DNA from: Nitrosomonas sp.
GTDB lineage: Bacteria; Pseudomonadota; Gammaproteobacteria; Burkholderiales; Nitrosomonadaceae
Assembly: GCA_024281995.1 (NCBI GenBank)
Contig: JAMWZW010000001.1
Location: forward strand, 682,001 to 746,000
Length of the DNA stretch: 64,000 nt
Direction: 5' to 3'
A program made the position numbers and the translations under genes. Under the pieces are notes generated by a model, which saw only the letters and a list, made by a program, of their open reading frames with translations, had not been told where the DNA came from and searched no databases. The first letter of the stretch is position 1. Each line of letters starts with the position of its first letter. Positions 16,048-35,074 of this stretch are shown here, piece by piece.

Positions 16048-17238
16048 ATGGCAAAGAGTAAATTTGAGCGGTCGAAGCCACACGTAAATGTCGGGACGAT
16101 AGGTCACGTGGATCATGGGAAGACGACGTTGACGGCGGCGATTACGACGATATTGACGAAGAAATTTGGTGGTGAAGCGAAGAGCTATGATCAAATTGAT
16201 TCTGCGCCGGAGGAGCGTGCTCGTGGGATCACAATAAATACTGCGCACGTAGAATATGAGACAGCCAGTCGTCACTACGCACATGTGGACTGTCCTGGGC
16301 ATGCGGATTACGTGAAGAATATGATTACGGGTGCGGCGCAGATGGATGGGGCGATATTGGTTGTGTCTGCTGCGGATGGGCCGATGCCGCAAACGCGTGA
16401 GCATATATTGTTAGCAAGGCAGGTAGGTGTTCCGTACATTATTGTGTACATGAACAAAGCTGATATGGTTGATGATGCGGAATTAATTGAGCTGGTAGAG
16501 ATGGAAATACGGGAATTGTTATCGAAGTATGATTTTCCTGGGGATGACACACCAATCATTGTTGGTTCGGCATTAAAGGCATTGGAAGGAGATCAAAGCG
16601 ATATTGGTGAGGCCTCTATTCTGAAACTGGCGGAAGCATTGGATAGTTATATTCCACAGCCGGAGCGTGCTATAGATGGTGCATTCATTATGCCAGTAGA
16701 AGATGTATTTTCAATTTCAGGCCGTGGGACGGTTGTGACGGGTCGTGTAGAAAGAGGGATAATTAAGGTGGGCGAGGAGATTGAGATTGTTGGTCTAAAG
16801 CCTACATTAAAGACAGTATGTACGGGTGTCGAAATGTTTCGCAAGCTGCTTGATCAGGGTCAAGCAGGCGACAATGTGGGTATATTGTTGCGTGGTACGA
16901 AGCGAGAAGAAGTAGAGCGGGGTCAGGTATTGGCGAAGCCTGGTAGTATCTCACCGCATACGAAATTCTCGGCGGAGATATATGTTTTGAGTAAAGAAGA
17001 AGGTGGAAGGCATACGCCATTTTTTCCGGGTTATCGACCACAGTTTTATTTTAGGACGACGGATGTGACGGGGGCGATTGAATTGCCGGCCGGAACGGAA
17101 ATGGTGATGCCTGGAGATAATGTGTCGGTCACAGTGAATTTGATAGCACCAATAGCTATGGAAGAAGGACTGCGCTTTGCGATACGTGAAGGTGGAAGGA
17201 CTGTAGGTGCGGGTGTCGTTGCTAAAATTATTGAGTGA
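16048..17238 (+). CDS. tuf: Elongation factor Tu
   Basis: 396 residues, full length. Delivers aminoacyl-tRNA to the ribosome with GTP. G1 [15 protein letters not shown]2 [10 protein letters not shown]3 [19 protein letters not shown]4 NKADM; domains II and III follow ([40 protein letters not shown]). The Shine-Dalgarno is replaced by a run of eight G's (16035-16042), about 5 nt before the ATG. Codon use is richer in G-ended codons than the nearby ribosomal genes. Betaproteobacteria usually have two near-identical tuf genes; only this one is in the window. Confidence 0.98.
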
Positions 17239-29484: not shown

Positions 29485-29541
29485 CACCCTAAAATTAAGT
29501 TAAAAAATAACTGGATAATAATATTTCTTTTGGTAAATCAC

Positions 29542-29570
29542 TTGACAGTATAAACTTGACTAAGTAGTCT
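29542..29570 (+). promoter_or_regulatory. Candidate promoter of the hao cluster
   Basis: TTGACA at 29542-29547 and TAGTCT at 29565-29570 are spaced by 17 nt, upstream of hao; the -35 is perfect, the -10 poor. It is followed by a ~100-nt purine-rich leader (29571-29674) ending in AAAGGAGAGAGAG before the hao ATG. A transcription start has not been shown. Confidence 0.4.
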
Positions 29571-29674
29571 AGAAGGGGAAGTGGGGAGGACGAGGAGAAG
29601 AGGCTGTTGCGAGAGAGAATAATAAAAAGAGTAAGGGAAGGGGATAAAAACATGGAAAAACAAAGGAGAGAGAG

Positions 29675-31399
29675 ATGAGTGCCAAGTTATGGCTAAGGAT
29701 GGCTGTGGTAATGTTAGGGGCGATGCTGATAGGGGCGGTAGAAGCGAACAACATGCCGAGCGTTCCGAATGAATTATTTGAGGCGTTGAAGATAGATCGA
29801 GTAGATCGTAACAAGGTTACGCCGGAGGAGTTGCATGAGGCGTTAGTGAAGCGCTACAAGGATCCTGAGCAAGGTGCTGGTAAGAAGTACGTAGCGCAAT
29901 ACTGGGAGCCTATTCCGTATGGGATGTATTTAGATCCTGCGACATTTTACAAATCGCCGATGACGAATAAAGAGATAGCAAGTCGTAAAGGAATGTGTGG
30001 AATGTCATACGGATGAATCGCCGGTATGGGTACAAGCGTGGAAGCGGAGTAGTGCGAACCTTGACAAGATTCGTAACTTGAAGCCTGAAGATCCGACATT
30101 TTATAAGAAAGCCAAATTAGAAGACGTGGAGAAGAATCTGCGTTCAATGGGGAGGCTTGCGGAAGGTGAGAATCTGAAAGAAGTTGGTTGCATAGACTGT
30201 CATGTAGACGTTGGTGCGAAGAAGAAAGCAAGATACTAAAGACATTAAGATGCCGACGGCAGATGTATGTGGTATTTGTCACTTACAAGAATTTGCGGAA
30301 CGTGAATCGGTTTACACCATGATATGGCCCCATGGGCAATGGCCGGATGGGCGTCCTTCACACGCGCTGGACTATAAGGCTAATGTAATAATGCAGCAGT
30401 TTGGGCTGCGATGCCACAACGTAGAAGTAGCGGAAGGTTGCTCGATGTGTCATACGAACCAGAACAAATGTGACTCGTGCCATACACGTCATGAATTTTC
30501 AGCAGCGGAATCGCGTAAACCGGAAGCGTGTGCGACCTGTCATAGTGGTGTAGATCACAACAACTGGGAAGCGTACTCGATGTCGAAGCACGGCACAGAT
30601 GGTATCGATGCTGGGCGACAAATGGAATTGGGAAGCGCCTTTGAAGGATGCTTATGCAGTGGGTGGTCAAAATGCGCCGACTTGTGCGGGTTGTCATATG
30701 GAATATGAAGGCGAATATAGCCATAACATGGTGAGGAAGATTCGCTGGGCGAACTATCCATTTGTTCCAGGTGTAGCAGAAAACATTAAGAGTGAATGGG
30801 CGGAAGCACGTTTAGATTCATGGGTTGTGACATGTACACAATGCCACTCACAGCGTTTTGCCGTTCTTATTTGCAGGAGTTGATGGATAAAGGTACTTTG
30901 GAAGGGTTGGCGAAATATCAGGAAGCCAATGACATTGTTCATCAGTTGTACAAAGAAGGCTTACTGACTGGTCAGAAGACCAATCGTCCGGCCCCTCCTG
31001 CTCCGGAGAAAGAAGGCTATGCATACTTTGCGCAGTTATTCTGGTCGAAAGGCAACAGTCCTGCAGCGATTGAGCTGAAAGTTCTGGAGATGCATGAAAA
31101 TGATCTGGCTAAGATGTCACGTAGGATTGGCACACGTTAATCCAGGTGGTTGGATTTATACTGAGGGTTGGGGGCCGATTAATCGGGCTTATGTAGAAAT
31201 TCAAGATGAAAACACACGCATCCGTGAAATGGTTGCATTACAAGAACGTGTTAAGAATCTTGAATCCAGAAAAACCAGCTTACTGGACTTAGAAGGCACA
31301 GCTGAGAAAAATCTCACTGGGCGGTTTAGGTGGTGGCATGTTGCTAGCCGGAACACTGGCGTCAGCAGGTGGCGCAAACGTAAGCAAAGCGAAGCTTGA
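29675..31399 (+). pseudogene. hao: Hydroxylamine dehydrogenase (HAO), full length but with multiple frameshifts
   Basis: HAO oxidises hydroxylamine in the periplasm and passes electrons to cytochrome c554. Frame switches along the segment recover the family protein end to end: a signal peptide (LWLRMAVVMLGAMLIGAVEA), all eight heme motifs CVECH, CIDCH, CGICH, CSMCH, CDSCH, CATCH, CAGCH, CTQCH, the GGWIYTEGWGP region expected to hold the heme-crosslinking Tyr, and a C-terminal hydrophobic tail ending WRKRKQSEA. Disruptions seen: +1 near 29990; net -2 at 30228-30236; a scrambled but compensated stretch at 30387-30422; +1 at 30594-30616; -1 near 30860; +1 T at 31117; +1 A at 31307-31311; -1 near 31370. 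Two in-frame His codons expected after KRSS and KAD also seem to be missing. As given it cannot make HAO. Decayed extra copy or consensus error cannot be told apart here. Confidence 0.9.
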
Positions 31400-31444
31400 C
31401 AAACACGGCAGTAACTGGCCGCACGGAGAAAGCGGTGCGGTCGG

Positions 31445-32461
31445 ATGATATAAGATACTCCCGTCATTAGGTATATTCCTAGTGACGGGAGGTTTGTTTT
31501 TGTGGGGCTGGTTTGCATATCTTTGGTTTAAACCGATACCTGTGCCGTATCACTATCAACTGATAGCAGAAGGTGACAGTCAGAAATTTTCCCAGATGGA
31601 TTTGGTTGGCTGGCCTGAGCTAAAACTTGGTCAATATAAAGTAAAAGCAAATGATATAGACAAGCCGATTGCTGAATTTATTGTTGCAAGACAAGACGAT
31701 GAGCCGCCGGTGTTGATGTACTGGAAGAATAGTACGAATGAAGTACTTTATAATTTTGATAGGAAGCCATCGGAGCTCAGTGCACTGGCTGCAGCGATCA
31801 TCAAGCACGCGCCGCAAGATGCCTTAATACTTTCATGGTGGGATACCTCACGGCAAATCAAGTTACTGACGGGGCGAGACACACTTTTTACCAGCCATTT
31901 GAATGAGCCGCTGATGGTTCCGTTACCCTGGTTGGAGCAAAGCCAAGCGATTCGGGCTTACGAGAACGAGTTTTGGGGAAGTAAAGTTGACCCGAAGGAA
32001 CATGAGCAATTTAAGCGTTTTAGTCAAGCCCTAGCGGCTCCTGCAGAAGAAGGAGCTAAGCAACTGCGGAAGCTCATTGGTTCAAATCGGGAAGCGTATA
32101 TAATTGTACACGTGACTGACCTGTACAAAGTAGGGGTGATGTATCCGGATAGGATAGGAGTTGCTTATCAGAACTTTCCTATGACGGGGAATATGCATGG
32201 CATGATTAATCAGATGAAGGTGCAAGTTAAAGAGAATAATTTTAACACTTATACTCTGCAATCCATATTGGATAGAATGAAATCAGGGCATTTTTTCTAA
32301 GTGACGAAGCCAGTAGTGAAACTTTGTTAGGGAAGATGTTTCCTTTTATAGAAAAGAAAGCGCCAGTAGAGCTGGAAGTATTGCAGCTTATATATCAGCA
32401 AGGGTGGTTATTGGGTACTCAAAATACCCTAAGTATGGGCTACGGCTATGAGAAGAGGTAG
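31445..32461 (+). pseudogene. haoB: HaoB (orf2 of the hao cluster), frameshifted
   Basis: The gene between hao and cycA in ammonia oxidisers encodes HaoB, a membrane-anchored protein of unclear role. Here ATG 31445 is followed, after removal of one T at 31451, by IKILPSLGIFLVTGGLFLWG (signal anchor) and a long intact stretch (272 codons, 31482-32300) with FKPIPVPYHYQLIAEGD, ALILSWWDTSRQIKLLTG and VHVTDLYKVGVMYPDRIG. One base is missing near 32287 (G run) and one near 32340 (T run). With both restored the frame goes on (FFLSDEASSETLLGKM, EVLQLIYQQG) to TAG 32459-32461. If read as is, only the middle could be translated, without its membrane anchor. Confidence 0.8.
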
Positions 32462-32578
32462 TTGAATTTTAGAGAACATCAAAGTAGCTGCATAATTGCT
32501 ACATAATTATTTACACAATCTGGTGATAGCGTACAATACGCGGCTATAACTTGAACTAAAAAAGCATAAAAGGAGGAG

Positions 32579-33303
32579 ATGAAACACTGATAAGCTATAT
32601 ATTTGGGGTATTAGCGATATTTACATTGATGTGTGGTACAGCAGCAGTAGCGGATACTTATGAAGGACGCACGAAATGCAGTTCATGCCACAAATCACAA
32701 GCGAAATCATGGAAAGATACAGCGCATGGTAAAGCGATGGAATCACTAGAGCCGGGTACACGCAAGGAAGCTAAGCTTAAAGCCAAGCTTGATCCGGATA
32801 AAGATTACACACAAGATAAAGATTGTGTAGGTTGTCACGTGGATGGATTTGGTAAGAAAGGTGGTTATACGATAGAGGCGCCTAAGAAGCCATTAGCGGC
32901 GGTTGGCTGTGAATCGTGTCACGGGCCTGGTAAAGCCTACCGAGGGGATCATCGTAAGGCAGGGCAGGTTTTTGAAAGTAAAGGTACAACGACACAGCGT
33001 AAAGTGCTTGCTGACAAAGGTCAAGACTTCACTTTTGAAGAAGCGTGCAGTGCGTGTCATCTAAACTATGAAGGTTCACCATGGAAAGGCGCGAAAGCAC
33101 CGTATACGCCATTTACACCGGAAGTAGACAAGAAGTATACGTTTGACTTTGATAAGATGGTGAAGGATGTTAAAGCGATGCATGAACACTATAAACTTGA
33201 CGGTACATTCGTAGGAGAGCCTAAATTCAAATATCATGATGAATTCCAGGCGAATGCAAAGGAGAAGGTAGCGGACAAGAAAGATAAGAAAGGAAAAGAC
33301 TAA
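32579..33303 (+). pseudogene. cycA: Cytochrome c554 (cycA), one base missing in the signal peptide
   Basis: Tetraheme periplasmic cytochrome that accepts electrons from HAO. Heme motifs CSSCH, CVGCH, CESCH and CSACH, plus KDCVGCHVDGFG and CHLNYEGSPWKGAKAPYTPF, match N. europaea c554. AGGAGGAG precedes ATG 32579, but the frame from it stops after three codons (MKH). One more A in the AAA at 32582-32584 gives MKTLISYIFGVLAIFTLMCG and a clean signal peptide cut after AAVA. Without it the only in-frame starts (TTG 32626, ATG 32629) lie near the end of the signal peptide, so export would fail. The rest of the gene (225 codons) is intact. Confidence 0.85.
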
Positions 33304-34005
33304 TGACGAGTTTACAAAAAGGGGCGATAGGGACGTTACTGACGGGAGGATTGCTGGGGATAGTGCTGGTGGCGGTGGTATTTGGAGGAGAAGCGGCGCT
33401 TTCGACGGAAGAATTTTGCTACCAGTTGTCACTGGATGACCTATACGCAAACGGAGTTGAAAGAATCGACGCACTATGGGGCATTGGGGGTAAATCCTGG
33501 TTGTAAGGATTGTCATATTCCGCAAGGATTAAGAACTTTCATTTAGCGTTATATACGCATGCGGTGGATGGGGCGAGGGAATTATCTTTTAGAGTTGATG
33601 AATGATTATTCGACGCTGGAGAAGTTTAATGAAAGGCGTTTGATAATGGCACATGATGCGCGGATGAACTTGAAGAAATGGGATAGTGTGACGTGTCGTG
33701 ATTGTCATAGGGATCCGAATCCACCGGGAGCGGATGCGCAGGAAGCGCATAAGAAGTTGAAGACGGAAGGTGCGACGTGTATAGATTGTCATCAAAATTT
33801 AGTGCACGAAGCGGTACCGAAGACGGATTTGAATGCGAGCTTGGCGGCGGGCAAGATGGTGGTGATGAAGGAAGAAGATGAAGGTGGTGAAGAAGAGGGA
33901 GATGAGGAAGATGAAGATGAAGATGGTGAGAGTAGTAGTAGTGAAGCGGTAGAGGGTGAGACTCAGAGTGAGGATGGTGAAGAAGAGGAAGACGACGAAG
34001 AGTAA
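33303..34005 (+). pseudogene. cycB: Membrane tetraheme cytochrome cM552 (cycB), frameshifted
   Basis: NapC/NirT-family quinone reductase that passes electrons from c554 to the ubiquinone pool. ATG overlaps the cycA stop by one base. N-terminal anchor TLLTGGLLGIVLVAVVFGG is intact. An extra T at 33420 falls inside the first heme motif (C-TSCH); one A is missing near 33531 and one extra T lies near 33584-33590. Restoring these gives four hemes: CTSCH, CKDCH, CRDCH, CIDCH. The C-terminal ~50 residues are an acidic Glu/Asp/Ser tail, as in the Nitrosomonas protein. A Ser to Trp change after the first heme (CHW for CHS) also suggests base-level damage or error. Confidence 0.85.
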
Positions 34006-34273
34006 GCTTGTTCCGCTGTGATAAAAAGAAAAAATCTGATTTGTTGTAGAATATTTGGGTTCTGGAAATATTAATATTACTGGAACCCATTCTATAAAAA
34101 ATAGAAAAACTCCGAAAAAGAGAAAAGTAGTGTAGAGAGAGAAAGAGAGCTTTTTGTAGATTTTAATAGAGTTTTATTTGATAGATAATAATTTGCTAAA
34201 TTCATCGGAATTCTGAGTACCCATAAAAGGATTCATTATAAAGATTATTTTTTTATGGTTGAATAAAACAAAT

Positions 34274-34321: not shown

Positions 34322-35074
34322 ATGTTTGACCATTTTCCAAAACCTGATGTAACTTATCCACACAGAAATAGAGATTATTTTATTGCTGGGTTTACTTTTT
34401 TTTGTGTAGCGGTAAGTTTAGTAATTGATGGAAGCGCGAGTATTCAGATTCAAAACCTGTTGGGTGTTATCGCCTGGCTTTTTCTAATTGGACTTTTAAT
34501 TGGCGAAAATAAAGAGATAAGGATGCAAGTGATAATTGCGGTGGCATTTGCTACAGCAGGAGAGCATTTTGCATCTATCTATATGGAGGGATATACCTAT
34601 CGATTTGGGAATGTACCGTATTATGTGCCTCCAGGTCACGGAATGGTTTATCTGACAGCTGTTAAACTTGCACGTTCAAGGTTTTTCTTAATGAATGCAA
34701 GAAAGCTGGCCTTCTTTGTTATAGTTGTTGGCGGCGTATGGTCGTTATGGGGTATCAGTGGAATACCTGAACAAGGAGATCAGGTGGGTGCTTTTTTATT
34801 TTGTATATTTGTCATTTGTATTTTTAAAGGTCGATCACCGATGGTTTATCTTGGTGCTTTTTTTATTTGTACTTGGTTGGAAATCATTGGTACAGCAGCT
34901 GGGACATGGAAATGGGCATCAATTGAGCCAGTTTTTAATTGGACCCAAGGAAACCCTCCTAGCGGAGTGGCTGCTTGGTATTGTCTAGTTGATGCTGTAG
35001 CCATTGGTTTTGCTCCAAAATTCCTAAATGGTTTGCAAAAAATGAGCAACTGGTATAAAACTCTTATTGAATAA
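34322..35074 (+). CDS. Integral membrane protein of unknown function
   Basis: 250 residues from ATG 34322; a longer open frame upstream runs through the terminator and is rejected. About seven hydrophobic segments. Polar residues within or next to them look functional: GEHFASIYMEGYTYRFG (residues ~80-95), YYVPPGHGMVYLTAVKL, TWLEIIGTAAGTWKWA and FNWTQGNPPSGVAAWYCLVDA. The recurring Glu, His and Trp suggest an enzyme or carrier acting in the membrane rather than a simple anchor. I do not recognise the family. It stands alone between the hao terminator and thrS. Confidence 0.65.
   Translation: MFDHFPKPDVTYPHRNRDYFIAGFTFFCVAVSLVIDGSASIQIQNLLGVIAWLFLIGLLIGENKEIRMQVIIAVAFATAGEHFASIYMEGYTYRFGNVPYYVPPGHGMVYLTAVKLARSRFFLMNARKLAFFVIVVGGVWSLWGISGIPEQGDQVGAFLFCIFVICIFKGRSPMVYLGAFFICTWLEIIGTAAGTWKWASIEPVFNWTQGNPPSGVAAWYCLVDAVAIGFAPKFLNGLQKMSNWYKTLIE

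What the first reader, a model, noticed from the sequence alone, without database searches (positions are those of the whole stretch)
29675..34005. Whole hao-haoB-cycA-cycB cluster is frame-disrupted, while the rest of the window is intact
At least fifteen frame disruptions in 4.3 kb (about eight in hao, three in haoB, one in cycA, three in cycB), against none evident in the other ~59 kb, including the 4-kb rpoB and rpoC next door. Ammonia oxidisers carry two or three nearly identical hao clusters, so one may be decaying by redundancy. The alternative is an assembly/polishing artefact confined to a multi-copy repeat; several changes are in homopolymers (A, T, G runs), which favours that. Complex local changes (30387-30422, 30594-30616) are harder to explain as simple homopolymer errors.
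Basis: partly seen in the sequence, partly recalled or inferred. Interest (0 to 1): 0.85.

Follow-up and report, generated by a model that had tools for sequence, protein, structure and literature searches.

The report
Sequencing-error patch over hydroxylamine-oxidation gene cluster
The gene cluster for hydroxylamine oxidation in this ammonia-oxidising bacterium looks shattered, but the damage is most likely uncorrected sequence errors in one copy of a repeated region of a draft genome, not a decaying gene cluster.

Summary
Sixteen frameshifts (hao 9, haoB 3, cycA 1, cycB 3), with in-frame and complex changes, lie in window 29.8-33.6 kb. About 46 kb of the rest, compared with relatives, shows none in a real gene. 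Decay is not supported. Away from the indels the cluster keeps ordinary constraint (16 private changes at 798 invariant codons; 18 at 959 in the nearest intact relative), with no stop by substitution; five substitutions per indel is excluded on every baseline tried, two or three only on the higher baselines. In the same genome one amo copy is damaged likewise while another is intact. Six contig ends carry edges of missing hao and amo copies, four as exact 77-base overlaps. No real frameshift was found in 36 hao clusters of 12 near-finished relatives, but three other drafts hold a garbled hao or amo copy beside an intact one; those of G025 are rich in homopolymer indels. Best explanation: a repeat copy bridged with error-prone, unpolished sequence. 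No raw reads were available.

The parts
29675..31399 (+). hao (hydroxylamine oxidoreductase), 9 frameshifts
   Evidence: 88% identity to the L084 protein when read across frames; 8 of 8 CXXCH motifs present across the frames. The name hao is recalled: NCBIfam gave only below-cut-off matches
31396..32432 (+). haoB, 3 frameshifts
   Evidence: TIGR04392 over cut-off for the open piece 31482-32297
32579..33303 (+). cycA (cytochrome c554), 1 frameshift at the fourth codon
   Evidence: NF043010 over cut-off for 32626-33300
33303..34005 (+). cycB (cytochrome cM552, NapC/NirT-like), 3 frameshifts; one of four CXXCH motifs lost
   Evidence: NapC/NirT match of the intact relative is below the curated cut-off; name recalled
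29535..29618 (+). 5' edge of the repeat: exact 77-base overlaps with the ends of contigs C10 (29535-29611) and C15 (29542-29618)
33950..34026 (+). 3' edge of the repeat: the first 77 bases of contig C7 are identical
   Evidence: 77 by reading together
34048..34100 (+). 3' flank shared exactly (53 bases, up to the end of the query) with the end of contig C16; 91 bases at 94.5% up to 34138

Best explanation
This is an ordinary hao-haoB-cycA-cycB cluster of a Nitrosomonas-type ammonia oxidiser, one of probably three nearly identical copies in the genome. Short reads could not resolve the copies. At this place the repeat was bridged with error-prone (probably long-read) sequence that was never corrected, because short reads map ambiguously inside repeats. 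The other two copies were lost at contig ends. The real locus is probably intact and working. Shown: the disruptions, their restriction to multi-copy DNA in the parts tested, ordinary substitution constraint, the contig ends carrying cluster edges, and the same pattern in an amo copy and in other drafts. Inferred: the long-read origin of the patch, the assembler, the copy number, and the intactness of the real locus.
For: (1) Sixteen frameshifts in 4.3 kb against none in real genes over about 46 kb of the window. (2) Away from indels, private changes at invariant codons are 16/798 (2.0%), with no nonsense substitution; three controls about as isolated, L084, L089 and L101, have 1.9, 1.2 and 3.4%. 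Five or ten neutral substitutions per indel are excluded even with a zero baseline (P = 0.0017, 1e-12). 15 of 16 haem motifs survive. (3) The amo copy at C21:55231-58599 differs from C7:12729-16088 by 15 mismatches and 9 gap openings; at the frame-changing differences C7 agrees with the 8 relatives displayed; a one-base loss lies just beyond, in the next gene. First-versus-second copy pairs in 12 near-finished genomes give 122 mismatches to 10 gap openings, Fisher P = 4e-4. (4) Only one hao cluster is assembled, but ends of C10, C15, C7 and C16 carry its edges, and ends of C3 and C12 those of a third amo copy. (5) 36 clusters in 12 near-finished relatives have no real frameshift, including the copies beside thrS in G017, G083 and G027. 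(6) Broken copies beside an intact one recur in drafts G057 and G025 (hao) and G059 (amo). The two in G025 are 97.2% and 94.1% identical to the intact one with 56 and 105 gap runs, 30 and 43 in homopolymers.
Against: No reads or coverage were examined, and the technology behind this assembly is unknown. The substitution test depends on its baseline: with the low private rates of the controls L086, L090, L094, L096, L097 and L100 (0-0.5%), two or three substitutions per indel would still fit. Natural copies compared in the Fisher test are under selection against indels, so that test does not by itself separate error from decay. Homopolymer indels are a minority here, unlike in G025. The C7 amoCAB copy crosses a 3.4-kb repeat undamaged, and the amoC of C21 is clean and identical over 811 bases to a solo amoC in C2. 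Other drafts hold two intact copies (amoB in G025, G028, G033, G013; hao in G028, G013). In G057 some substitutions of the broken copy match a relative and look like natural variation.
Confidence: 0.89

Rival explanations
1. A genuine pseudogene cluster: one of three redundant copies has escaped gene conversion and decays, the other two being intact but unassembled.
For: Frame disruptions are real in the deposited sequence and, in the parts tested, confined to redundant genes. A diverged copy is easier to assemble through than identical ones, which would explain why this copy is inside a 912-kb contig while the others end at contig ends. With a low baseline, two or three neutral substitutions per indel are not excluded.
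Against: No stops by substitution and no excess of private changes over comparably isolated relatives. No real frameshift in 36 clusters of 12 near-finished genomes. Bursts of several changes in about 10-20 bases between unchanged stretches of about 100-330 bases in the C21 copy. A study reports long-lasting concerted evolution of amo, hao and cyc genes and cites slower growth after loss of one copy (PMC6053082, passages).
Confidence: 0.08
2. A chimeric consensus: reads of several real, slightly different copies were merged into one unreadable sequence.
For: Natural copies differ by up to about 2% in some relatives (G036, G005).
Against: Natural copies differ mostly by substitutions and keep their frames; merging intact copies should not give 16 frameshifts.
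Confidence: 0.03

Closest known systems
hao-haoB-cycA-cycB clusters of Nitrosomonadales (named as multi-copy genes in PMC6053082, passages)
   Same: Gene order, gene families, and three near-identical copies per genome in 12 near-finished relatives.
   Different: Frames broken by indels in this deposited copy.
Residual errors in repeats of long-read or hybrid assemblies (Polypolish, PMC8812927, abstract; gene-fragmenting errors, PMC12007338, start of abstract and passages)
   Same: Errors persist where short-read polishing is unreliable, that is in repeats; genes look pseudogenised.
   Different: Indels here are mostly outside homopolymers and more often gains than losses; the actual technology is unknown.

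Membership tests
hao-haoB-cycA-cycB cluster | Homologues of all four genes in order | tested here: met
Genuine pseudogene cluster | Relaxed constraint: excess replacement and nonsense substitutions | tested here: not met
   depends on the baseline for low substitution-to-indel ratios
Genuine pseudogene cluster | Indels present in independent reads of the locus | not testable with these tools
   no reads available
Assembly/polishing artefact in a repeat | Damage confined to multi-copy DNA | tested here: met
   for the window; parallel case C21 amo. The rest of the genome was not scanned
Assembly/polishing artefact in a repeat | Other copies missing, contigs ending at the repeat edges | tested here: met
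Assembly/polishing artefact in a repeat | Indels not accompanied by the substitutions that neutral decay would bring | tested here: met
   for five or more substitutions per indel on any baseline tried
Assembly/polishing artefact in a repeat | Homopolymer-dominated error profile | tested here: not met
   about 3-4 of 16 here by reading; 30 of 56 and 43 of 105 in G025. That not all long-read errors are of this kind is recalled
Assembly/polishing artefact in a repeat | Anomalous read depth or error-bearing reads | not testable with these tools
   no reads available

The most novel reading that the evidence does not exclude
One hao cluster and one amo cluster of this strain really are decaying, mainly by indels: an escape from the concerted evolution of the ammonia-oxidation genes, in a lineage with an unusually indel-biased mutation process.
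Probability: 0.07. Interest if true: 0.5.

Novelty: not a real feature. Interest (0 to 1): 0.1.

Why it matters
As biology it is most likely ordinary. As a warning it is useful: in draft genomes of ammonia oxidisers the multi-copy hao and amo clusters can look like pseudogenes when they are not, so copy counts and gene-loss claims for them are safer from finished genomes. A like signature was seen in three other public drafts of the genus (G025, G057, G059).

Tried and rejected
Considered and dropped: real decay, a chimeric consensus of natural copies, and general low quality of the contig (about 46 kb of clean genes). The two-copy tuf gene was checked as a short repeat: the second copy at C10:32959-34149 matches full length at a printed 100%, with slightly fewer bits (2135 against 2149), so a 1.2-kb repeat was resolved. 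Attempts to name the strain from papers led nowhere: the ANs5 announcement (whole text; 122 contigs, 52% GC) does not fit, and passages of a hybrid-metagenome paper (PMC7648391) settle nothing. Paper searches.

Rows set aside. 28 of 85 genus genomes gave no HAO match and 23 of 85 no AmoB match. Of the 144 gene copies in 36 near-finished clusters, 140 were tested; the two missing hao copies (G066) are open, two cycB copies (L175, L178) were cut off by my fetch. Two of 140 were flagged, both cycB of G066 (L105 one stop, L172 one shift at residue 212 of 224); cycB is shorter there (209 residues in L105), so I read them as the natural end. L175 cycA had one stop in tblastn but none in the trimmed alignment. 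G043 and G044, listed as one contig but 89 and 83% complete and with N runs, were left out of the 12; their full copies keep their frames (L101, L106, L181), and L179 and L180 hold only a piece of hao. Draft G015 (L099) has a single frameshift in hao; cycB tails of drafts L103 and L107 are flagged; none was followed up. The TAA in the HAO match of draft G069 is not inside the aligned reading frame, residues 6-568. Of 8 genomes listed with 20-40 contigs, 4 (G000, G025, G057, G059) have a broken copy; G008, G024, G035 and G041 have at most one full copy of either gene, unbroken. For the Fisher test I used one pair per genome, 12 of 36 pairs. In one search, of which only rows of 45% identity or more were printed, one rplJ row (L014_22) has a stop, and shadow ORFs have many. 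One search left out codons near indels: 1162 of 1377 were used.

Full report
What is there. The window lies at C1:682001-746000 of a 2.88-Mb genome in 21 contigs; the contig is 912,526 bases long. Between rpoC and a gene of about 250 residues upstream of thrS lies a hao-haoB-cycA-cycB cluster. haoB and cycA are named by NCBIfam matches over cut-off of window pieces; cycB by a below-cut-off NapC/NirT match of the intact relative; hao by homology to the relatives' 570-residue protein with eight CXXCH motifs. The names hao, cycB, rpoC and thrS are recalled. The genus is Nitrosomonas-like by content; no call names the strain.

The observation. Aligning the proteins of an intact relative (L084, genome G017) with frameshifts allowed gives 9, 3, 1 and 3 frameshifts in hao, haoB, cycA and cycB. 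DNA alignment with 15 intact genus clusters shows 25 private indel events, 19 of them not a multiple of three, from 29802 to 33976. As a control, 46,157 bases of the window outside the cluster were covered by ORFs from G017, G083, G027 and three outgroup loci. Ten of 161 rows there carry a stop or shift (hand count): six are antisense ORFs and four are over-extended starts.

Decay or error: the substitution test. A copy that has lost its function long enough to gather 16 frameshifts should also carry unconstrained substitutions. Away from the indels the window has private residues at 5/343, 7/147, 1/167 and 3/141 invariant codons of hao, haoB, cycA and cycB (2.0%), with no stop by substitution. 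The ten intact controls run from 0 to 8.9%. They depend on how isolated each is: those with a relative above 90% identity have 0-0.3%; L090, L089, L084 and L101, whose nearest relative is 82-85% identical, have 0.5, 1.2, 1.9 and 3.4%; L104 (73%) has 8.9%. The window's nearest relative is at 80%, so 2.0% is ordinary. Simulated neutral substitutions hit an invariant codon with a replacement 47% of the time. Five substitutions per indel would give P = 0.0017 even with a zero baseline and 2e-7 with that of L084. Two per indel are excluded only with the L084 baseline (P = 0.012); three with that baseline (P = 5e-4) or with a baseline of eight (P = 0.016). That bacterial neutral mutation gives several substitutions per indel is recalled, not tested. 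15 of 16 haem-binding motifs persist across the frames.

The same damage in a second repeat, with an intact copy to compare. The amoCAB copy at C7:12729-16088 is open in all three genes. The copy at C21:55231-58599 is 99.1% identical but has amoA and amoB broken, and a one-base loss in the next gene, amoE by position. At the frame-changing differences the C7 state is that of the eight relatives displayed. Several changes come as bursts within about 10-20 bases, with unchanged stretches of about 100-330 bases between them. First-versus-second hao copies in 12 near-finished genomes show 122 mismatches to 10 gap openings; C7 and C21 show 15 to 9. The natural copies are under selection, so this contrast says that C21 is abnormal, not why. 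Against a simple story: C7 crosses this repeat undamaged, and the amoC of C21 is clean and identical over 811 bases to a solo amoC in C2.

Anatomy of the breaks. No other hao cluster was found in the assembly. Contigs C10 and C15 end in exactly 77 bases of its 5' edge, C7 begins with exactly 77 bases of its 3' edge, and C16 ends in the 3' flank. C3 ends in exactly 77 bases, and C12 in at least 70, of the edges of a third amo copy. Equal 77-base overlaps are what a de Bruijn graph with k = 77 leaves at unresolved repeats (inference). So the genome most likely has three hao and three amo clusters, like G017 and G027.

Relatives. In 12 near-finished genomes (1-4 contigs as listed) the 36 hao clusters keep their frames: 138 of 140 tested gene copies are without a flag, and the two flags are in cycB of one genome; the window scores 14 on the same scale. 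Copies within a genome are 98-100% identical. In G017, G083 and G027 the copy beside thrS is intact. Broken copies occur in other drafts: G057 (one of two hao clusters, 10 frameshifts), G025 (two of three hao copies; 97.2% and 94.1% identical to the intact one with 56 and 105 gap runs, 30 and 43 in homopolymers) and G059 (one of two amo copies, 29 gap runs, 8 in homopolymers). Both amoB copies of G025 are intact, and drafts G028, G033 and G013 have two intact copies of amoB, G028 and G013 also of hao, so drafts are not always damaged. In G057 some substitutions of the broken copy agree with a relative.

Literature seen. A study of concerted evolution reports that amo, hao and cyc genes of eight Nitrosomonadales species are kept in nearly identical copies, and cites slower growth after loss of one copy (PMC6053082, passages). 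The Polypolish abstract states that most short-read polishers rely on alignment that is unreliable in repeats, so errors often remain there (PMC8812927). Gene-fragmenting long-read errors that mimic pseudogenes are described in PMC12007338 (start of abstract; passages).

Conclusion. The cluster is ordinary and probably intact in the living cell. The broken frames are best explained as uncorrected errors in one bridged copy of a repeat with probably three copies. Not shown: the reads, the platform and the assembler.

Noticed in passing
L126 (own genome C21:54.8-57.2 kb): amoA, amoB and the next gene of one amo cluster are frame-broken while the C7 copy of amoCAB is intact.
   Followed up: yes
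L187 and L188 (G025 C13, C18), L189 (G059 C8), L182 (G057 C4): Garbled hao or amo copies in three other public draft genomes of the genus, each with an intact copy elsewhere in the same genome.
   Followed up: partly
L186 (own genome C2:11225-12035): A solo amoC identical over 811 bases to the amoC of the C21 cluster.
   Followed up: no
window 16048-17238: tuf has a second full-length copy at C10:32959-34149, printed as 100% identical.
   Followed up: partly
L099 (G015 C22): A single frameshift in an otherwise intact hao of another draft.
   Followed up: no
window 34322-35062: A gene of about 250 residues between the cluster and thrS, 88-89% identical in three relatives; not identified.
   Followed up: no
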